A DNA stretch of 9,708 nt, from the NCBI GenBank assembly GCA_905067535.1, contig CAJHIR010000039.1:1-9708 (forward strand), written 5' to 3'. The first letter of the stretch is position 1. Every line of letters starts with the position of its first letter. Origin of the DNA: Candidatus Argoarchaeum ethanivorans (lineage in GTDB: Archaea > Halobacteriota > Methanosarcinia > Methanosarcinales > EX4572-44). The position numbers and the translations under genes are program-made. This document shows, piece after piece, positions 385 through 9,569 of the stretch. The notes beneath the pieces were generated by a model. That model worked only from the letters and a program-made list of their open reading frames with translations, was not told where the DNA came from and searched no databases.

Positions 385-1134
385 TCACATTTCCTCAAGC
401 AGTGTAAGCACTGCCTGCTGGCATCTTGATACTGCGAGTGGCAGATTCCATACCTGTTCAGACCTGTCCACGACAAGATTACTGATTCCCCGAACTTCAA
501 CAAGTGGAACATCATAAATGGTACACACATGAGCTGCTGCGGCACCCTCCATGTTTTCGCATATACCGCCAAAAAGACGATGTAAGTGTTCACCTTGTTT
601 TTGTGTGCCTGAGCAGCAAGACACAGTAACAAATGTACCAATGCGTGGTGCATAGCCGTTATTTTTCAAAACTTCCATAGCGCGTTTAGATAGCTCAGCA
701 TCCAGCAAAAATTCATTATAACAGGTGTTTCCTGGTGTATCAATAGTTGGCAGATTTATCTGTTGAAGATCGCAAAAACCATCTGGCGTGAGAATCCCTT
801 CATCACCATATACCTCCTTTGTAGCTACTGTTAAATCTCCAGTTGTTAGCCCTGTATCCAGATAAGCTCCAGCACACCCAAACAGAATCACCCTTCGAGG
901 GCTTATTCGTTCCATGATTGCCGTTAATGTGTGCGATACATTGGTTTTTCCAACCCCGCTTACAACAAGCATGATCTTATTGCCTGCGAGTTCTCCCGAG
1001 TGGACCTGCCTTCTTCCTATAGTCATTGAGGTAGTGTTTTTGATTTTATCCTGGAGGTGTTCTGCCTCAGCTTTCACAGAACACAGCAGTACAGTAATCT
1101 CATGCATCCTTTTGCCGGTTTGTATCTTATTCAT
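385..1134 (-). CDS. mqnB: Futalosine-hydrolase-like (MqnB-type) nucleosidase
   Basis: This 249-residue protein belongs to the nucleoside phosphorylase/hydrolase superfamily that includes MTA/SAH nucleosidase. It shows SGVGKTN (59-65), GCAGAYLDTGLTTGD (86-100), FVTVSCCSGT (168-177), ENMEGAAAAHVC (193-204, the ribose-binding MEGAA motif) and EVRGISN (213-219). The VRGISN motif with Asn219, where MTA/SAH nucleosidases have VRAISD with a catalytic Asp, and the following VxxRxxxxW pattern are typical of futalosine hydrolase. That enzyme splits futalosine into dehypoxanthine futalosine and hypoxanthine in the alternative menaquinone pathway. No other mqn gene is in the window, so the substrate is an inference and a related nucleosidase role is possible. 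The ATG at 1134 has no strong Shine-Dalgarno site; an in-frame ATG at 1107, just before HEITVLLC, would trim nine residues. It is divergently arranged with serA. Confidence 0.78.
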   Translation of the reverse strand: MNKIQTGKRMHEITVLLCSVKAEAEHLQDKIKNTTSMTIGRRQVHSGELAGNKIMLVVSGVGKTNVSHTLTAIMERISPRRVILFGCAGAYLDTGLTTGDLTVATKEVYGDEGILTPDGFCDLQQINLPTIDTPGNTCYNEFLLDAELSKRAMEVLKNNGYAPRIGTFVTVSCCSGTQKQGEHLHRLFGGICENMEGAAAAHVCTIYDVPLVEVRGISNLVVDRSEQVWNLPLAVSRCQQAVLTLLEEM

Positions 1135-3098: not shown

Positions 3099-3167
3099 AT
3101 GAGTAAGGATTTGAACTACAATCAAGAGTTATTTCCGTACACGGAGTGTGCGGGTGATACAGTATGA
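3099..3167 (+). CDS. 22-codon upstream ORF overlapping the rsbR start
   Basis: An ATG at 3099 follows GGTGAT (3088-3093) by 5 bases, the same arrangement as at rsbR (GGTGAT 3153-3158, ATG 3164). The ORF begins MSKDLNYNQEL, resembling the rsbR product's MSMNLNKEL, and the DNA from GGTGATACAG to GAGTT aligns between the two sites with one 6-base gap. Its stop TGA (3165-3167) overlaps the rsbR ATG as ATGA, which would allow translational coupling. It may be a leader peptide, or only a remnant of a partial duplication of the rsbR 5' end. No function for the peptide is recognised. Confidence 0.35.
   Translation: MSKDLNYNQELFPYTECAGDTV
3135..3158 (+). promoter_or_regulatory. Hairpin overlapping the rsbR ribosome-binding site
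   Basis: CCGTACAC (3135-3142) and GTGTGCGG (3146-3153) pair over 8 positions, with one T-G pair, around a GGA loop. The same CGTACAC/GGA/GTGTACG type of hairpin occurs at 331-349. The 3' arm covers the first two bases of the rsbR Shine-Dalgarno site GGGTGAT (3152-3158), so in RNA the fold could limit ribosome access unless ribosomes on the upstream ORF open it. The pairing is seen; the regulatory role is inferred. Confidence 0.45.
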
Positions 3168-3976
3168 GTATGAATCTAAACAAAGAGTTGAGTTTGTTGT
3201 TCGAGGGCCATGCAGATCAGTTGAAAGAGCAGTGGATATCTGAGATGAAAAAGCTTGGTTTTCTTGAACAGGTAAGCGATGATGAAATAGAAAAACAGTT
3301 CACTAATCTATATGATATAGCTGTATCAACCTTCAAAACCGGTAAATATGACGATGCTGAAAAATATGCAAGAGATATAGCACAGAAGGCTGTGCTTCAG
3401 CACATGACTGTTGACCAGATTATAGGTGGCATGTTAAAACTTCGAGATGTATATCAATGTTTCATATTTGAAAAATTCAAAGATGATAAAAGACTTTGCG
3501 ATCTTATATCTGCTTGTGCAACCGTTATAAATAAAATTGTGTCTATCAAGGCTCTTGCTTTTGTAGAAGAAAGCGAGAAAGAGATTCTGCAACAGCAAAA
3601 AGAAGCGATGCTTGCTTTATCCATACCAGTACTGCAAATACGGGATGAAATGCTGATACTGCCCTTAATCGGAATCATCGACTCTGCAAGGTCACAGCAA
3701 ATCGTGGAGGAACTGTTAAACAAGATTGCTGAATACCAGGCATCCATTATTATTATTGACCTTACCGGAGTTCCGATTATTGACAGCCTGGTAGCAAACC
3801 ATATAATAAAAACTGTGCAGGCAGCAAAAATGCTTGGTGCAGAAACCATTATCACAGGAATAAGCCCACCAAATGCGCAAACACTGGTAAACATTGGTGT
3901 TGATATTTCAACACTGATTACAAAAAATAATCTTCGTACAGGGCTCAAGTTAGCTGACGAAATGCTTCAAAAGTGA
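3164..3976 (+). CDS. rsbR: RsbR-like stressosome sensor/scaffold protein (RsbRD_N + STAS)
   Basis: This is a 270-residue protein. Residues 1-140 are helical and resemble the RsbRD-type N-terminal sensory domain, with ARDIAQKAVLQHMTVDQIIGGMLKLRDVY at 69-97. Residues about 150-268 form a STAS domain typical of RsbR: PVLQIRDEMLILPLIGIIDS (155-174), IIIIDLTGVPIIDSLVANHII (195-215), TGISPPNAQTLVNIGVD (231-247) and ITKNNLRTGLKLA (252-264). In Bacillus, RsbR and RsbS build the stressosome, which holds the kinase RsbT until stress. Ser208 in IIDS occupies the STAS position that RsbT phosphorylates; Bacillus RsbR has Thr there. The signal sensed by the N-terminal domain is unknown, and no haem- or flavin-binding motif is apparent. 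GGGTGAT at 3152-3158 supports this start. It is the first gene of a six-gene operon, with rsbS beginning 10 bases downstream. Confidence 0.9.
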   Translation: MSMNLNKELSLLFEGHADQLKEQWISEMKKLGFLEQVSDDEIEKQFTNLYDIAVSTFKTGKYDDAEKYARDIAQKAVLQHMTVDQIIGGMLKLRDVYQCFIFEKFKDDKRLCDLISACATVINKIVSIKALAFVEESEKEILQQQKEAMLALSIPVLQIRDEMLILPLIGIIDSARSQQIVEELLNKIAEYQASIIIIDLTGVPIIDSLVANHIIKTVQAAKMLGAETIITGISPPNAQTLVNIGVDISTLITKNNLRTGLKLADEMLQK

Positions 3977-3984
3977 GGTGATCC
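3975..3984 (+). promoter_or_regulatory. Extended Shine-Dalgarno site deciding the rsbS start
   Basis: GAGGTGATCC is fully complementary to the usual 3' tail of 16S rRNA (GGATCACCTC), and its first two bases lie inside the rsbR stop codon. It sits 2 bases before TTG at 3987. The GTG at 3978 lies within the site itself and so is not a plausible start. The next gene also has a close match (AGGTGG at 4351-4356, before TTG 4364). Confidence 0.7.
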
Positions 3985-3986
3985 GG

Positions 3987-4352
3987 TTGGATATTCCTAT
4001 CTTAAAAATTGAGAATTTTCTTGTTGTGACCATCCAGGCAGAAATGTCAGATGATGAGATATTAAAGCTTCAAAAAGACATATTATCCAGAATTAAGGAA
4101 GTTAGTGCATCCGGATTGATTATTGACATTACTGCCCTTGATGTGGTTGACAGTTTCATGGGTAGAACTCTTTCAAACATTGCAAACACCGCTGACCTCC
4201 TTGGTGCAAAGACTGTTGTGGTTGGCATCCGTCCCGCGGTTGCATTAACACTTGTAGAACTTGGAATACGTATCAAGTGGAATCTAAATACTGCATTGAA
4301 CCTTGAAAAAGGCATAGATATGTTAAAAAAACGTATTGAAACAAGAGGTTAG
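3987..4352 (+). CDS. rsbS: RsbS-like stressosome STAS protein
   Basis: This 121-residue single STAS domain protein closely follows Bacillus RsbS in pattern: DIPILKIENFLVVTIQAEMSD (2-22), GLIIDITALDVVDSFMGRTL (43-62), LLGAKTVVVGIRPAVALTLVELGI (71-94) and the C-terminal TALNLEKGIDMLKK (102-115). RsbS is the core stressosome subunit that sequesters RsbT. Ser56 in VVDSF matches the residue RsbT phosphorylates (Ser59 in Bacillus; the offset of three equals the shorter N-terminus here). The start is taken as TTG at 3987, behind an extended ribosome-binding site. This gives MDIPILK, in line with the family, whereas GTG at 3978 would add three residues. It lies directly between rsbR and rsbT, with rsbT following after 11 bases. 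Confidence 0.92.
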   Translation: MDIPILKIENFLVVTIQAEMSDDEILKLQKDILSRIKEVSASGLIIDITALDVVDSFMGRTLSNIANTADLLGAKTVVVGIRPAVALTLVELGIRIKWNLNTALNLEKGIDMLKKRIETRG

Positions 4353-4363
4353 GTGGTTTCGTT

Positions 4364-4774
4364 TTGAGTGAGACAGAAAAAAGAATATCAATCAAATCCA
4401 GTGCAGACATCATTACTGCACGGGGTGTTGGGAGAGAAATGGCGAAACAACTTGGTTTTAACATCGTTGATCAGACAAAAATCACCACTGCTATCTCAGA
4501 GCTTACCAGAAACATCGTCACTTATACAGGCAAAGGCAGAGTGATTATAAAAAAGATACACAGTGATGTTGATAAAAAGGATGGTATGGCAATTATATGT
4601 ACCGATAAGGGACCTGGCATAGAGAGCATTGAACTTGTTCTCAAAGCCGGATACAGCACATCAAACAGTCTTGGGCTTGGACTTTCCGGTGCAAAAATGC
4701 TCATGGATGACTTTGACATCAAATCAAAACCTGGACAAGGTACCAGGGTAACGATTAAGAAATGGTTAAGATAA
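4364..4774 (+). CDS. rsbT: RsbT-like switch protein kinase
   Basis: This 136-residue GHKL-fold serine kinase is of the RsbT type. The ATP-binding boxes are intact: N-box ITTAISELTRNI (40-51, with Glu46 and Asn50), G1 box DKGPGI (81-86), lid GYSTSNSLGLGLSG (96-109), and the closing GQGTRVTIKKWLR (124-136). Length and order match Bacillus RsbT (133 residues). In the known system RsbT is held by the RsbR-RsbS complex, phosphorylates its STAS domains on stress, then leaves and binds the N-terminal domain of its partner. Here the obvious partner is the RsbU_N-like protein encoded at 5730-6812. The start is TTG at 4364 behind AGGTGG (4351-4356). The next gene begins 7 bases after the stop. Confidence 0.93.
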   Translation: MSETEKRISIKSSADIITARGVGREMAKQLGFNIVDQTKITTAISELTRNIVTYTGKGRVIIKKIHSDVDKKDGMAIICTDKGPGIESIELVLKAGYSTSNSLGLGLSGAKMLMDDFDIKSKPGQGTRVTIKKWLR

Positions 4775-4780
4775 CACGTT

Positions 4781-5146
4781 ATGCAAGTTGCTACTGAAGT
4801 GCTGTATGTGAACAGTGAAGCAAGCATTGTAACTGCACGAGAAACGGTGAAAAAAATTGCAGAAAGTGTTGGGTTTGATGTTTATGATCAATATCGAATT
4901 GCTACCGCTGTATCAGAACTTGCTGAAAATGCAGTAAAATATGCAGATGGCGGAACCATGGAGTTTCATCCCATCGAGAGAGGACTTGAAATTATCTGCA
5001 AGGATTCCGGCAGAGATATGATGCAAAAAAATACTGGACACGGTCTTGGAATCGGTCTTAAAAGCATTGAACATCTGATGGATGAAATGATCATCACAAC
5101 AGATGCACATGGAACACGCATCCTGACAAGGAAGTGGTTGAAATGA
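4781..5146 (+). CDS. Second RsbT/RsbW-like ATPase-fold protein with a degenerate G1 box
   Basis: This 121-residue protein is related to RsbT along its whole length. Shared features are SIVTARETVKKIAESVGFDVYDQYRIATAVSELAENAVKYA (15-55, N-box Glu46 and Asn50), a short lid with GHGLGIGL (86-93) and a GTRILTRKWLK end (111-121). The G1 box reads DSGRDM (75-80): Asp75 and Gly77 are kept, but the second Gly of DxGxG is Asp79, so ATP binding or kinase activity may be weakened. In many bacteria such a domain is fused to an RsbX-like phosphatase. Here the two are separate genes sharing an ATGA stop-start overlap, which points to coupled translation and a joint function. It could be a regulatory partner of RsbX or a second switch kinase. 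The ATG at 4781 has no clear Shine-Dalgarno site and probably depends on translation of rsbT. Confidence 0.85.
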   Translation: MQVATEVLYVNSEASIVTARETVKKIAESVGFDVYDQYRIATAVSELAENAVKYADGGTMEFHPIERGLEIICKDSGRDMMQKNTGHGLGIGLKSIEHLMDEMIITTDAHGTRILTRKWLK

Positions 5147-5733
5147 ATGTAGGTGTAATCAGTCGCCCAAAGAAGGGTTTTAGTGCAAATGGGGATTCCT
5201 ACGTGATTGAAAAAATCAATCAGAAAATATTAATTAGTGTTATTGATGGGATAGGGCACGGAGTTCATGCAGACAATGCTGCAACAAAATGTGTAAACAC
5301 CATAAAAAAATACATTCAATCCAGCGAAGATTGCAATCTAATCATTCTTTTTAATCGATGCCATGAAGCACTTAAAAGCACTGATGGTGTAGTCATGGCT
5401 TCAGTTCTTGTCGATGCACCATGTGGCACGATACGCTATGCAGGAATCGGCAATATTGCAACACGCATTATTGGTATGAAAAACATTTATCCTATACCAA
5501 GAGGGGGCATAGTCGGGTACAACATGCCGGCAGTAAAAGAATACACATATCCATACAAAAGAGGAGATTTAATACTTATGTATACAGACGGCATAATCTC
5601 ACGAATCAACTCAGACCTGTGTATCAGACTGCAAAACCTTGAAGAACAAACAATAGCAGAAGAGCTATTCAAACAGTATGCACGAGATGATGATGATGCA
5701 ACGCTGCTTGTAGCGCGTGAGGAGAGTACATGA
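5143..5733 (+). CDS. rsbX: RsbX-like PP2C/SpoIIE-type serine phosphatase
   Basis: This 196-residue phosphatase has the size of Bacillus RsbX (199 residues). The metal-binding and core motifs of the SpoIIE/PP2C fold are present: NGD (16-18), VIDGIGHG (33-40, Asp35), VVMASVLVD (83-91), IRYAGIGNI (97-105), GDLILMYTDGI (141-151, Asp149) and DDDDATLLVA (182-191). RsbX removes phosphates from RsbR and RsbS and resets the stressosome; that role fits its place in the rsb operon. ATG at 5143 is preferred because it overlaps the previous stop as ATGA and GGAAGTGG lies just upstream. A GTG at 5134 would add three residues. The following gene again overlaps by ATGA (5730-5733). Confidence 0.9.
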   Translation: MNVGVISRPKKGFSANGDSYVIEKINQKILISVIDGIGHGVHADNAATKCVNTIKKYIQSSEDCNLIILFNRCHEALKSTDGVVMASVLVDAPCGTIRYAGIGNIATRIIGMKNIYPIPRGGIVGYNMPAVKEYTYPYKRGDLILMYTDGIISRINSDLCIRLQNLEEQTIAEELFKQYARDDDDATLLVAREEST

Positions 5734-6812
5734 ATCCTGAAGAACTGAAAGAGACATATATAACACTTCTTAATGACTATCTATTCGGGGGAGATGATGA
5801 AGCAGCACTCTACAAAGCCTATGAATTCAGCAGAGAGAGTATAAATGAAAGAGTTGGACTTGAAGAAATAGCTGCTGTCCATATAGATGGTATTGGAAAA
5901 ATGATTAATAAAGTGCCATTCAATGAAATTCCGCTTATCATCTCAAAATCCTCTATTTTCCTTCTTGAATTCATCATGAACTTCAGCCTCCTGTATAAAG
6001 AATACTTTGAGCTGTGGGAGAGAACCGGCAGTCAGCTGCATGAGGCAATAAAACAGACAGGGGATGCACTGACAGCATGTTTAAACCTCGATGAAACTCT
6101 TAAAATAATTTCAAGTTTAATGCAAAAAACTACTGGAAGCGATTCTATATTAATTTATCTATCAAAAAACTCACACCTGAAACATGCACATACAGATAAC
6201 ATCGTAATAGAAACGCTGCCCAAAGAAGCTGCTACACACAATACTCTTGCATGGGATGCCATATCTGATGCATCAATTAAAACCTCAATAACACCAGAAG
6301 ATATGAAAAAGTATCCTGCTCCAAAGATTAAAAATGGAATAGAGCCATTATCTGCTGTTGCAATACCACTCATTGGAAAAAATATGGTCATTGGTGCTGT
6401 CGAATGCTACTATGAACTGCCCCACAAATTAACCGAACTGGACAATAAGACTTTACTAAACTTAGCAAGCAGTGCAGCAAAAAGCATAGAGAATATATAC
6501 CAGCTCAGAAGCACAAACGAACACAAGAATATGTTAACGCCAGACGAAGCAGCCAGTCGATGCAGAGTTGCACGAAGGATAATACTTGGGGAAGGAGTAG
6601 AAGGGTACCACCTTCCGAACAAAGTCTGCAAAGGGTTAAAAGGACTGATAGAACATCTTGACAGCATCAAAGAAGAAGATGTCAAGTGGGTAGTGAGATG
6701 GATAGAGTACCTTGGTGATACTGAACTTGCTCTCCGAATTAAGGCACATCCAGAAGAGTTTAAAGAAATCATCAGAGACAGGTATGAACAGCTTAAGAAA
6801 TTTGCTCTATAG
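5730..6812 (+). CDS. RsbU_N-GAF protein with an unrecognised C-terminal helical domain
   Basis: This is a 360-residue protein in three parts. Residues 1-95 (ELKETYITLLNDYLFGGDD, YEFSRESINERVGLEEIAAVH, MNFSLLYKEYFELW) resemble the N-terminal domain of RsbU, the site where free RsbT docks. Residues about 115-258 form a GAF-like sensory domain that begins LNLDETLKIISSLMQKTTGSDSILIYL and has SAVAIPLIGKNMVIGAVECYY at 208-228. Residues about 265-360 are charged and helical, with RCRVARRIILGEGVEGYH (277-294), WVVRWIEYLGDTELALRIK (320-338) and EIIRDRYEQLKKF (346-358). This last part takes the place of the PP2C phosphatase of RsbU and is not a family I recognise. It has no HATPase, GGDEF or clear DNA-binding helix-turn-helix motif. 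As the last gene of the operon, with GAGGAG at 5719-5724 and an ATGA overlap with rsbX, it is the best candidate for the downstream output of the module. Confidence 0.82.
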   Translation: MNPEELKETYITLLNDYLFGGDDEAALYKAYEFSRESINERVGLEEIAAVHIDGIGKMINKVPFNEIPLIISKSSIFLLEFIMNFSLLYKEYFELWERTGSQLHEAIKQTGDALTACLNLDETLKIISSLMQKTTGSDSILIYLSKNSHLKHAHTDNIVIETLPKEAATHNTLAWDAISDASIKTSITPEDMKKYPAPKIKNGIEPLSAVAIPLIGKNMVIGAVECYYELPHKLTELDNKTLLNLASSAAKSIENIYQLRSTNEHKNMLTPDEAASRCRVARRIILGEGVEGYHLPNKVCKGLKGLIEHLDSIKEEDVKWVVRWIEYLGDTELALRIKAHPEEFKEIIRDRYEQLKKFAL

Positions 6813-6950: not shown

Positions 6951-6960
6951 TATATTTTTT
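6951..6960 (+). terminator. Candidate T-rich terminator of the rsb operon
   Basis: TATATTTTTT in the convergent spacer, followed by more T-rich sequence, fits the T-tract type of archaeal terminator. It lies about 140 bases past the last rsb operon gene and touches the end of the opposing gene. No strong stem directly precedes it. Confidence 0.3.
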
Positions 6961-8261
6961 CATTTCTCTATGCTGCTGCTCGTATCACCCGTATCTTCGC
7001 TGTAAATATTATTTTCAATCATTGATTCAAACATGAAGTATTTTTCTACATAACCGCGCAGTTCCTCGTCTGAGATACAGGACACTCGCTGCTCTGTATC
7101 ATACAATCGGTGAATCTCTCTCTGGATTGCTTTTATACGCCTGTCATGTTTGTCAAGAGTAATGGTCACACGCATCAGTTTATTCAATGTCTCTTCTACT
7201 TTATGCCGGATCACTTCAAGTCCAGAAGAGTCCCCAATCAGAAGCTGCCTGGTTGCTCCTATCAACTCTGGCGGATAAGGCTCGTAGGTGAATGGATTTT
7301 TGATAACACCAGCTGAATGGATTCCACTTTCATGTGCAAACACATTTCGACCTACAAGTGCTTTGTTACATGGTATGCGAATTCCAATTTCATCCTCCAT
7401 AAAACGAGAGAATTCACTGATAGTGCTTAAGTCATATTTATCAAAACCTTCGACCCTCTGCTTTAAAAATAGCAATATCTTCTCAAGTTCGGCATTACCA
7501 GCACGTTCCCCGATACCAAGGAAGGTGACACTTGTCCAGTTAGCACCATGCCAGTAAGCTGAAATCGTGTTTGATACACCGAGCCCAAAGTCATCATGCA
7601 TGTGTGATTCAATATTCTTTACCCCGATTTCCTTCAATCCATTGATAATATAAGGTATCCCGTATGGTTCGCTCACATCCACAAATGGTATTCCAAAACC
7701 AAGCGTGTCACATGGTCTAATAATGCAGTTGGGGTCTATTTCAATCAGTTCTTTTACGAGCGGGAATACGAAATTATTGATATCCGAACGGGTAATATCC
7801 TCGATGTGAGCACGTGTACGAAGCCCATGATCCACTGCATACTGCAAAGTTTCAATATACTTGTCACGTGCTTCTTCTCTATTTTTAAGACCCATCTTCT
7901 CAATAATGTGTGAATCTGACACCGACATGAGGATACCAGTTTCTTCTATTCCCTCCATACTCAGTACAGAATCGATATCCTTTGGATTGGATCTTGCCCA
8001 GCCTGTAACTTCTGGACACTCATACCCGTAATCAAGCATGTCACGCACTGCTGCACGATCCCGCTCATTGAACACAAAAGCTTCAAGTTTTTCAATACAC
8101 ATTTTATGCAGGTAATCGTAGATCTTCAGCTTGTGGCGTTTCTTAAGTACGATTCCTGCCATTTGAGAGCCGTCACGGATCGTGCTATCGCTGATATACA
8201 CGTCCTGTCCATGAGGCAGCTTAATCTTAGGCAAATCTTCGTATGAACGATATTCTTTCAT
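6960..8261 (-). CDS. DRE-TIM aldolase, Re-citrate synthase / homocitrate synthase group
   Basis: This 433-residue acyl-CoA Claisen-condensing enzyme belongs to the homocitrate/isopropylmalate synthase superfamily. It has the start motif DSTIRDGSQ (25-33, with Arg29 and Asp30), the metal-binding ESHMHDDFGLGVSN (218-231, His220 and His222), GERAGNAELEK (251-261) and HESGIHSAGVIKNPFTYEP (310-328). The Ser in RDGSQ, where homocitrate and isopropylmalate synthases have RDGEQ, and the extended PFTYEPYPPELIG region are features I associate with the Re-citrate synthase group (oxaloacetate plus acetyl-CoA to citrate). It lacks the LeuA regulatory domain of 2-isopropylmalate synthases (about 510 residues). 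The C-terminal tail is Ser/Asp-rich and probably disordered. The start is ATG at 8261 behind GGAGTGAT (8273-8266 on the minus strand), rather than the upstream TTG at 8285. Annotation as homocitrate or isopropylmalate synthase is the alternative. Confidence 0.85.
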   Translation of the reverse strand: MKEYRSYEDLPKIKLPHGQDVYISDSTIRDGSQMAGIVLKKRHKLKIYDYLHKMCIEKLEAFVFNERDRAAVRDMLDYGYECPEVTGWARSNPKDIDSVLSMEGIEETGILMSVSDSHIIEKMGLKNREEARDKYIETLQYAVDHGLRTRAHIEDITRSDINNFVFPLVKELIEIDPNCIIRPCDTLGFGIPFVDVSEPYGIPYIINGLKEIGVKNIESHMHDDFGLGVSNTISAYWHGANWTSVTFLGIGERAGNAELEKILLFLKQRVEGFDKYDLSTISEFSRFMEDEIGIRIPCNKALVGRNVFAHESGIHSAGVIKNPFTYEPYPPELIGATRQLLIGDSSGLEVIRHKVEETLNKLMRVTITLDKHDRRIKAIQREIHRLYDTEQRVSCISDEELRGYVEKYFMFESMIENNIYSEDTGDTSSSIEK

Positions 8262-8277
8262 ATAAATCACTCCAACA

Positions 8278-8340
8278 CCACACAACTTCGTTGTGCGGAA
8301 ATATTAATAACTCTTAATTCTCGATTGCGAAGCAATCAAG
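8278..8340. repeat. Two-hairpin intergenic repeat, copy 4
   Basis: Hairpin A is CCACACAAC (8278-8286) and GTTGTGCGG (8290-8298) around TTC, with one A/C mismatch. Hairpin B is CTCGATTGC (8320-8328) and GCAATCAAG (8332-8340) around GAA, with one C/A mismatch that is a G-T pair on the other strand. It lies just upstream of the minus-strand aldolase gene and downstream of nothing, so unlike copies 1-3 it occupies a 5' leader or promoter zone. Confidence 0.75.
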
Positions 8341-8558: not shown

Positions 8559-9569
8559 TTGATTAAAGAAGCAATGCTGTATACATCGTTGGAAGATGGT
8601 AAAGTCAAGTGCCATGTATGCAATCGAGAGTGCATAATCTCCGAGGGTAAGTATGGTTTCTGCAGAACCCGGCAGAATAAAAATGGCAAGCTGTACACAT
8701 TGATTTATGGTGTTGTATCGAGTGCATCTGTTGACCCGATTGAGAAGAAACCACTATATCATTTTATGCCTCGCAGTACGAGTTATTCTCTTGGTACCGT
8801 TGGGTGTAATTTTAGATGTAAGAACTGTCAGAATTATACCATTTCGCAGATGCGTATTGACGAGGTGAATACTGTTGAAATACTTCCGGAAGACGCTCTC
8901 AACCGTGCTCTGTCTTCAGGCTGCCGGAGCATTTCATTTACTTACAATGAACCTGCGATATGGTTTGAGTATACCTATGATACTGCAAAACTGGCACACG
9001 AGGCAGGAATTGCTACCGTGTATGTTACAAATGGATACATCAGCGAGAAGGCACTTCGAATGATTGCACCATATCTTGATGCTTTCAGTGTTGACATTAA
9101 ATCATTTAGAGATGGTTTTTATAAAGAAATATGCAGTGCTAAACTTGCACCAGTACTTAGATCTGCAAAACTTGCAAGGGAACTTGGTATGCACGTAGAA
9201 GTTGTAAACCTTATTATTCCAACACTTAATGATTCCTTAGAGGAAATAAGAGAACTTGTGCAGTGGGTACGTGACAATCTTGGTGATTACACACCGATGC
9301 ACTTTACACGTTTTTATCCTTATTATAAATTGGATAAATTACCGTCCACACCACTTCGCACACTTGAAGACGCTTACAGCGTTGCCAAGGAGGAAGCTAT
9401 GAAATACGTGTACATTGGAAACGTGCCTGGCACAGAAAAAGATAACACCTATTGTCCAAACTGTGGTGAACTATTAATCAGACGGTATGGATTTGATGTA
9501 ACGTGTGATGGACTCACTTCTGATAACAGATGCCGGAAATGTAATACTGAGATAGAAATCAGACGCTAA
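8559..9569 (+). CDS. amrS: AmrS, radical SAM enzyme of the AmmeMemoRadiSam group
   Basis: This 336-residue radical SAM protein has the Cys motif CNFRCKNC (83-90, a CX3CX2C cluster that binds the 4Fe-4S centre cleaving S-adenosylmethionine). It also has an N-terminal Cys set (Cys18, Cys21, Cys25, Cys35 in CHVCNREC...GFC), a SASVDPIEKKPLYHFMP stretch (55-71) typical of AmrS, FTYNEPAIWFEY (127-138), and a C-terminal zinc-ribbon-like part (CPNC 299-302, CRKC 325-328). AmrS proteins are widespread in archaea and often accompany AMMECR1 and Memo-like proteins; neither is in this window, and the reaction is not well defined. Pyruvate formate-lyase activase is a common misannotation. The start is TTG at 8559; the next candidate is ATG at 8574. 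The frame is closed by TGA at 8550, so no longer form exists. GGGTGTGAT lies just upstream. The gene appears monocistronic. Confidence 0.93.
   Translation: MIKEAMLYTSLEDGKVKCHVCNRECIISEGKYGFCRTRQNKNGKLYTLIYGVVSSASVDPIEKKPLYHFMPRSTSYSLGTVGCNFRCKNCQNYTISQMRIDEVNTVEILPEDALNRALSSGCRSISFTYNEPAIWFEYTYDTAKLAHEAGIATVYVTNGYISEKALRMIAPYLDAFSVDIKSFRDGFYKEICSAKLAPVLRSAKLARELGMHVEVVNLIIPTLNDSLEEIRELVQWVRDNLGDYTPMHFTRFYPYYKLDKLPSTPLRTLEDAYSVAKEEAMKYVYIGNVPGTEKDNTYCPNCGELLIRRYGFDVTCDGLTSDNRCRKCNTEIEIRR

What the first reader, a model, noticed from the sequence alone, without database searches (positions are those of the whole stretch)
3164..6812. Complete stressosome-type rsb operon in a probable archaeon
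Six tightly spaced genes encode RsbR, RsbS, RsbT, a second RsbT-like protein, RsbX and an RsbU_N protein. The RsbS phosphosite (Ser56) and the RsbT ATP-binding boxes are intact, so the partner-switch chemistry should work. The module is known from bacteria, where it ends on sigma-B or on cyclase-type outputs; archaea have no sigma factors. If the host is archaeal, the output must be new. No sigma factor, RsbV/RsbW pair or RsbU phosphatase appears in the window.
Basis: partly seen in the sequence, partly recalled or inferred. Interest (0 to 1): 0.85.

Follow-up and report, generated by a model that had tools for sequence, protein, structure and literature searches.

The report
Archaeal stressosome with swapped output protein
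Ethane-eating archaea carry a bacterial-type stress-sensing switch whose usual enzyme output has been replaced by a protein ending in a small, uncharacterised archaeal domain, so the alarm seems to be wired to something new.

Summary
The six-gene cluster is real: RsbR, RsbS, RsbT, a second RsbT-like ATPase, RsbX and an RsbU_N-GAF protein. The RsbS phosphosite is Ser59, not Ser56, and the sixth protein has a third domain. The host is archaeal: the nearest contig is Ca. Argoarchaeum ethanivorans. R-S-T-T2-X occurs in 6 of 6 family genomes, the sixth gene's end in 5. Sigma70_r2: 0 of 14 genomes.

Archaeal stressosomes are already mentioned in print. In 18 of 19 other archaeal genomes read, RsbU_N is fused to a histidine kinase, an output type known from bacteria. 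So "the output must be new" fails for archaea in general.

It may hold for this family: its RsbU_N-GAF protein has no recognised catalytic domain and ends in an unnamed archaeal domain ("P6C"), whose homologues sit beside glycosyltransferase or nucleotidyltransferase genes in 14 of 17 loci read. Five of six family genomes, all five incomplete, show no HisKA kinase. Best reading: freed RsbT switches a non-catalytic adaptor. Its target is unknown; sugar metabolism is a lead only.

The parts
3164..3976 (+). RsbR: N-terminal sensor-like region plus C-terminal STAS domain; Ser174 and Ser208 at the phospho-acceptor places
   Evidence: Pfam STAS E 8e-15; stressosome chains E 7e-32 and 3.5e-31; alignment
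3978..4352 (+). RsbS: single STAS domain, phosphosite Ser59 (GTG start)
   Evidence: Pfam STAS E 3e-11; RsbS 6jhk E 4e-30; Ser position
4364..4774 (+). RsbT1: switch kinase with intact N, G1 and G2 boxes (TTG start)
   Evidence: HATPase_c E 1e-11; 3319 proteins at E up to 1e-3, many of the listed ones named RsbT or anti-sigma regulatory factor; alignment
4781..5146 (+). RsbT2: second RsbT/RsbW-like ATPase with shortened ATP lid; function unknown
   Evidence: HATPase_c_2 E 2e-9; alignment; dN/dS 0.14 and 0.15 against G001 and G004
5134..5733 (+). RsbX: PP2C/SpoIIE-type reset phosphatase, DGIGHG / TDG / DDDD residues kept
   Evidence: SpoIIE E 1e-13; PDB 3zt9 E 7e-25, RsbX 3w40 E 5e-14; residue positions
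5730..6044 (+). Sixth protein, residues 1-105: RsbU_N (RsbT-docking) domain
   Evidence: PF08673 E 1e-12; RsbU N-domain 2j70 E 6e-7; dN/dS 0.07 and 0.15
6045..6515 (+). Sixth protein, residues 106-262: GAF-like domain
   Evidence: GAF_2 E 4e-6, 27.6 bits against a cut-off of 28.6; low-confidence model, top fold matches (none at E 1e-3) are GAF-containing proteins
6516..6809 (+). Sixth protein, residues 263-360: 'P6C', a largely helical (low-confidence model) archaeal domain without a Pfam match
   Evidence: matches in 24 other genomes of 294 searched, E up to 0.01; 239 proteins with a 12-row profile; no Pfam match for the domain, none in Pfam or NCBIfam for two standalone homologues; invariant W...WxEYLGDxExA core

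Best explanation
This is a stressosome-type partner switch in a Ca. Argoarchaeum genome. Shown: the genes, their order, the phospho-acceptor and ATP/metal-binding residues, purifying selection, conservation in the archaeal family, no Sigma70_r2 domain in the genomes searched. Inferred: RsbR (perhaps with a PAS-STAS paralogue elsewhere in the genome) and RsbS hold RsbT1; on stress RsbT1 phosphorylates RsbS Ser59 and RsbR Ser174/208 and is released; it then docks on the RsbU_N domain of the sixth protein, whose GAF and P6C parts change their partner binding; RsbX resets the core. The output is then a protein-protein switch carried by a non-catalytic adaptor, not a sigma factor, phosphatase, cyclase or histidine kinase. 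What P6C binds is not known. RsbT2 may be a second partner or a sink.
For: Families and residues. Gene order in the f1 genomes, with the P6C end found in 5 of 6 and cut off in G002. Full-length relatives of the sixth protein: 8, at 55-96% identity, plus one partial GAF/phosphatase match. Tree of R+S+T+X: window with all f1 rows (100/100), Methanoperedens sister (100/99). The RsbU_N tail is a histidine kinase in 18 of 19 other archaeal genomes and GGDEF or HD in two bacterial loci (L113, L117, of 80 read) with the same R-S-T-T-X order, so the tail is the exchangeable part. P6C found once in each of five f1 genomes, only in the sixth protein. HisKA in 0 of G001-G004 and G006, 3 in G005. dN/dS against G001 and G004: P6C 0.12 and 0.21.
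Against: No biochemistry; RsbT-RsbU_N binding is carried over from bacteria. GAF match is just under Pfam's cut-off. Structure models are poor (mean pLDDT 41 and 60), with no fold match at 1e-3. Five of the six f1 genomes are 56-82% complete, so missing kinases may be unsequenced; other histidine kinase types and receivers were not searched. A separate response regulator or cyclase could act downstream. GAF dN/dS of 0.53 against G001 (0.28 against G004) hints at relaxed or shifting constraint in the middle of the adaptor.
Confidence: 0.6

Rival explanations
1. Ordinary two-component output: the sixth protein hands the signal to a separate histidine kinase or response regulator, as in the archaeal relatives, only unfused.
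For: RsbU_N-histidine kinase in 18 of 19 other archaeal genomes. In the sister clade G036 the RsbU_N-GAFx4 protein also lacks a kinase and a separate MEDS-kinase gene is the second gene on. G005 has 3 HisKA hits.
Against: HisKA 0 in G001-G004 and G006; no histidine kinase or receiver among the ten window proteins scanned, the HATPase-only T1/T2 aside. Flanks of the other f1 loci were not scanned for receivers.
Confidence: 0.15
2. Output loss: the kinase tail went, the sixth protein is a relic or an RsbT sink, and the real output is RsbT2 acting as an RsbW-like switch on an unknown target.
For: RsbT2 is present in all six f1 genomes and its best NCBIfam hit is RsbW, though far under the cut-off (27 against 145 bits); GAF dN/dS 0.53 against G001.
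Against: P6C is not a decayed kinase but a homologue of intact small archaeal proteins (E to 2e-17; profile probability 99.7) and is under purifying selection. RsbT2's ATP lid is shortened and its G1 box varies.
Confidence: 0.15
3. P6C is a DNA- or RNA-binding domain and the adaptor is a stress-controlled regulator of transcription.
For: One small homologue (P0138) is named by its source as an AbrB/MazE-fold DNA-binding protein; transcription is the usual end of the Bacillus pathway (recalled).
Against: That name is on one of the 120 listed; the others that bear a name are hypothetical or uncharacterised. No DNA-binding Pfam or NCBIfam match. Homologues mostly sit with sugar-metabolism genes.
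Confidence: 0.1

Closest known systems
Stressosome rsbRSTX module with two-component output (Gram-negative bacteria; PMC9237108)
   Same: R-S-T-X core, RsbX inside the module, no sigB cascade, downstream proteins with RsbU_N in some species (passages)
   Different: Outputs named in the passages are c-di-GMP enzymes or kinase/receiver relays; here the tail of the RsbU_N protein is P6C, and a second RsbT-like gene is present. I did not see the figure with the paper's eleven output types
Moorella RsbU_N-GAF-GGDEF (MtG) and the R-S-T-T-X loci L113 (RsbU_N-GGDEF, RsbU_N-GAF-HD) and L117 (RsbU_N alone, RsbU_N-GAF-HD)
   Same: RsbU_N-GAF front; two HATPases before RsbX in L113 and L117 (MtG from a legend of PMC12143880)
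   Different: c-di-GMP-type domains in place of P6C; the f1 RsbT2 does not group with the bacterial second ATPase (weakly resolved)
Archaeal RsbU_N-histidine kinase modules (Methanoperedens-like f5 and families f3, f4, f10, f28)
   Same: Same core; Methanoperedens G016/G036/L187 are the sister in the R+S+T+X tree (100/99)
   Different: Histidine kinase tail instead of P6C; G036 has neither
B. subtilis sigB operon
   Same: RsbR, RsbS, RsbT, RsbX and the RsbU N-domain
   Different: No sigma factor or RsbU phosphatase domain and no separate RsbW-type protein beyond T1/T2 in five of six f1 genomes; RsbV not searched with a model of its own

Membership tests
Stressosome rsbRSTX module | RsbR (sensor-STAS), RsbS (STAS), RsbT (HATPase), RsbX (PP2C) encoded together | tested here: met
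Stressosome rsbRSTX module | Hydroxyl phospho-acceptors in RsbS and RsbR; ATP boxes in RsbT | tested here: met
   Ser59, Ser174, Ser208, N/G1/G2 boxes (B. subtilis numbering recalled)
Stressosome rsbRSTX module | Assembly of a large RsbR-RsbS-RsbT particle | not testable with these tools
   needs expression and cryo-EM
Sigma-B cascade | Sigma factor and RsbU PP2C domain | tested here: not met
   PF04542 0 of 14 genomes; PF07228 one hit per genome, RsbX only, 6 of 6
Sigma-B cascade | RsbV | not tested
   no search with an RsbV model; the RsbS search found no other small STAS protein in G001-G006 at E 1e-3, which could miss it
Stressosome with two-component output | RsbU_N protein fused to a histidine kinase | tested here: not met
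   sixth protein has none; met in 18 of 19 other archaeal genomes
Stressosome with c-di-GMP output | GGDEF or HD-GYP-type domain on the RsbU_N protein | tested here: not met
   none in the sixth protein; GGDEF or HD present in L113, L117, L132, L143
DUF5752 (PF19027) | P6C matches the DUF5752 profile | tested here: inconclusive
   against the DUF5752-like tail of the nucleotidyltransferase: 8% (7 rows), 64% (18 rows), 16% (127 rows); 1-4% against DUF5752 itself; unrelated controls 0.2-0.6%; no Pfam match
P6C-like archaeal small proteins | Sequence homology over the W...WxEYLGDxExA core | tested here: met
   (probability 99.7)

The most novel reading that the evidence does not exclude
In ethane-oxidising archaea the stressosome ends directly on metabolism: RsbT released by stress switches an RsbU_N-GAF-P6C adaptor whose P6C domain docks on glycosyltransferases or sugar-nucleotide enzymes and so controls trehalose or glycogen synthesis without any transcription step.
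Probability: 0.18. Interest if true: 0.8.

Novelty: new variant of a known kind. Interest (0 to 1): 0.5.

Why it matters
Stressosome outputs in bacteria are known to be exchangeable, but those named in the passages I read are phosphatases, c-di-GMP enzymes and kinase/receiver relays. A family in which that tail was replaced by an archaeal domain would give a clean test of whether RsbT can control a plain adaptor, would show how a bacterial signalling module was rewired in archaea, and would give a functional handle on the P6C family, which has no Pfam match. It would also say how these archaea, in five of whose six genomes (those five incomplete) no HisKA kinase was found, pass on stress signals.

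Tried and rejected
Rejected: chimeric assembly (left flank recurs in G001, G003, G004; right neighbour pair recurs in G003). Rejected: bacterial host. Rejected: archaeal stressosomes as one simple inheritance: holding all 27 archaeal rows together is rejected (p 0.0009), but without G020 and G028, which nest among Acidobacteria, it is not (p 0.295; that second group was chosen after seeing the tree), so at least two entries, direction inferred. Led nowhere: single-sequence structure model (pLDDT 41; one of two jobs spent on it); fold search of the second model (no match at 1e-3); PDB match for RsbT; DUF5752 in print (0 papers); P6C as a DUF5752 member (looked suggestive, with more rows did not hold it up). 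RsbT-only tree is poorly resolved. Against the sugar lead: 3 of 17 P6C loci show neither enzyme (two of them, L105 and L106, lie within 0.3 kb of a contig end); in L099 the glycosyltransferase is on the other strand; P6C in the f1 genomes occurs only in the sixth protein, and their best matches to the ANME-1-type nucleotidyltransferase are 41-42% identical in five genomes, do not reach its C-terminal part, and are only fragments in G006; the GH15 gene beside the sixth gene in G005 and G006 is convergent, not co-directional, and its type is not assigned (all NCBIfam hits under cut-off).
Full report
What was claimed and what is there. The six genes at 3164-6812 are real, tightly packed and co-directional, with the expected domains and solved relatives for RsbS, RsbR, RsbX and the RsbU N-domain; RsbT found none at 1e-3. 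The phosphosite of RsbS is Ser59, not Ser56. RsbR has Ser at both acceptor places (reference numbering recalled). RsbT1 keeps its ATP boxes; RsbT2 has a shortened lid. Codon comparison with G001 and G004 shows purifying selection on each of the six genes (dN/dS 0.07-0.36), with the GAF part of the sixth protein the loosest (0.53 and 0.28) (NG86, small counts).

Host. The window's own assembly is not held. The nearest held contig, G001:C10, has the same length (78,810 bp) as a record titled Ca. Argoarchaeum ethanivorans Eth-Arch1; relatives are titled GoM-Arc1-GOS and ex4572_44. That the genus oxidises ethane is recalled. I call this family f1. RsbS hits are in 6 of 6 f1 genomes, R-S-T-T2-X in 6 of 6. 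The sixth gene is cut by a contig end in G002 and lies on another contig in G003, where the HMGL-like gene follows on the opposite strand as in the window. No Sigma70_r2 match in 14 of 14 genomes searched (6 f1, 8 others), against 10 of 14 controls.

What archaeal stressosomes usually drive. RsbU_N occurs in 24 of 392 genomes sampled from the phylum, once each. Sixteen of the 24 have RsbS and RsbT beside it. The tail of the RsbU_N protein is a histidine kinase in 17 of 24, a HisKA_2 fragment in 1 (G120), PAS only in 3 (G054, G072, G109; partial RsbU_N matches), GAF only in 1 (G114), and P6C in 2 (G001, G005). Adding relatives found through RsbS, I read 19 non-f1 archaeal genomes with RsbS-RsbT: f3 3, f4 7, f5 4, f10 3, f28 2. 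Eighteen have RsbU_N fused to a kinase; the exception, G036, has RsbU_N-GAFx4 with a separate kinase as the second gene on. Some of these readings rest on Pfam, the rest on phmmer with pieces of those proteins. So the usual archaeal answer is a two-component output, of a type already described in Proteobacteria (passages of PMC9237108 and PMC12143880).

What is different in f1. The readable f1 versions of the sixth protein are RsbU_N-GAF-P6C, and a database search found 8 full-length relatives (limited to proteins sharing exact words). P6C has no Pfam match, and two small homologues have none in Pfam or NCBIfam. Homologues: 33 matches at E up to 0.01, G001's own copy among them, in 25 of 294 phylum genomes, and 239 proteins by profile, 120 listed (that search only admits short proteins, so it cannot show long fusions). 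Names given include Methanophagales, Syntrophoarchaeum and Methanocella. I fetched 17 loci from 16 of the 25 genomes. ORFs there are 72-155 residues, one 297. A GT4 glycosyltransferase gene is next to the P6C-like gene in 13 of 17, a sugar-1-phosphate nucleotidyltransferase in 10 of 17, one or the other in 14 of 17; three (L100, L105, L106) show neither, two of them at contig ends (by phmmer). In L092 the enzymes are NTP_transferase, GT4 and phosphoglycerate kinase by Pfam. G197 holds both a kinase-type stressosome and a separate small P6C protein, so the two are not always linked.

How it came about. In the tree of R+S+T+X (48 rows, 568 columns) f1 is one clade and Methanoperedens its sister (100/99). 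The simplest story is an exchange of the tail for P6C in the f1 ancestor (inference). Archaeal modules are not one clade: p 0.0009 for all 27 rows, p 0.295 once G020 and G028 are left out.

Mechanism. The partner-switch chemistry can be carried over from bacteria. Passages of PMC12143880 say that RsbT binding to the RsbU N-domain and linker rigidifies the linker and dimerises the attached domains. With no enzyme recognised on the tail, the most likely output is a changed interaction of P6C. Two-component hand-over remains possible: HisKA was not found in 5 of 6 f1 genomes, all five incomplete (56-82%), and is present three times in G005.

The sugar lead. A DUF5752 protein and a 411-414 residue gene product are neighbours in the five f1 loci read (L201-L205; G002 not read); that gene is TreT by profile in L203, and the f3 neighbour in L206 too; the rest go by position, length and start sequence. 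A GH15 gene lies beyond three further genes from DUF5752 in G004, and beside the sixth gene, convergent, in G005 and G006. In Sulfolobus a mutant without trehalose does not grow under salt stress, although loss of treT alone gave no growth defect (passages of PMC7688234). P6C is not shown to be a DUF5752 domain, so this is a lead and not a finding.

Prior print. Passages of PMC9237108, PMC8942246 and PMC10014275 say that stressosome genes occur in some archaea. Among titles and abstract starts listed by my searches (25 of 42 papers; 12: 0; 24: 15 of 18; 25: 13 of 13; 82: 10 of 10; 83: 6 of 6) none has an archaeal stressosome as its subject. The library is open-access only, and the cited 2005 and 2017 reviews were not looked up. 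Passages were also seen of PMC7522486, PMC2739297, PMC4976288 and PMC2887360, which added nothing on archaeal modules. DUF5752 gave no paper; a search for Argoarchaeum with stress listed nothing on this system by title or abstract start.

Noticed in passing
L037:3794-5731 (G005); STAS hits also in G001:C40, G003:C18, G004:C1: A second RsbR-like protein away from the operon: four PAS domains plus STAS in G005 by Pfam, STAS hits in 4 of 6 f1 genomes, apparently split in G001; a possible extra sensor input.
   Followed up: partly
window 385-1134 (-): Futalosine hydrolase above the NCBIfam cut-off (201.6 against 124.7 bits), hinting at the futalosine menaquinone route in this archaeon.
   Followed up: no
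window 6960-8285 (-): HMGL-like protein (homocitrate/isopropylmalate synthase superfamily) under the cut-off of all 17 NCBIfam models listed; kept at 81-99% identity in five f1 genomes, in two frames in G001.
   Followed up: partly
window 8559-9569 (+): AmmeMemoRadiSam-type radical SAM enzyme above cut-off.
   Followed up: no
L140: Ca. Methanoperedens nitroreducens has RsbT next to RsbU_N-GAF-GAF-kinase with no RsbR or RsbS detected in the 12 kb read.
   Followed up: no
L077 (G373), L078 (G162): Orphan RsbU_N-histidine kinase genes without RsbS or RsbT detected in the 14 kb read.
   Followed up: no
L035 (G020), L036 (G028): A stressosome with RsbU_N-PAS-kinase-receiver output that nests among Acidobacteria (tree): probably a separate transfer.
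   Followed up: partly
L201-L206: DUF5752 protein next to a TreT or TreT-sized gene in five f1 loci and one f3 locus; no paper on DUF5752 in the library.
   Followed up: partly
L117:3507-3818: A standalone 103-residue RsbU_N protein in Peptococcaceae bacterium BRH_c4a, just before an RsbU_N-GAF-HD protein.
   Followed up: no
P0128 / G005: The f1 genome G005 (contig 1,922,745 bp) is named Candidatus Methanoperedenaceae archaeon GB37 by a source, while kinship puts it in the window's family f1.
   Followed up: no
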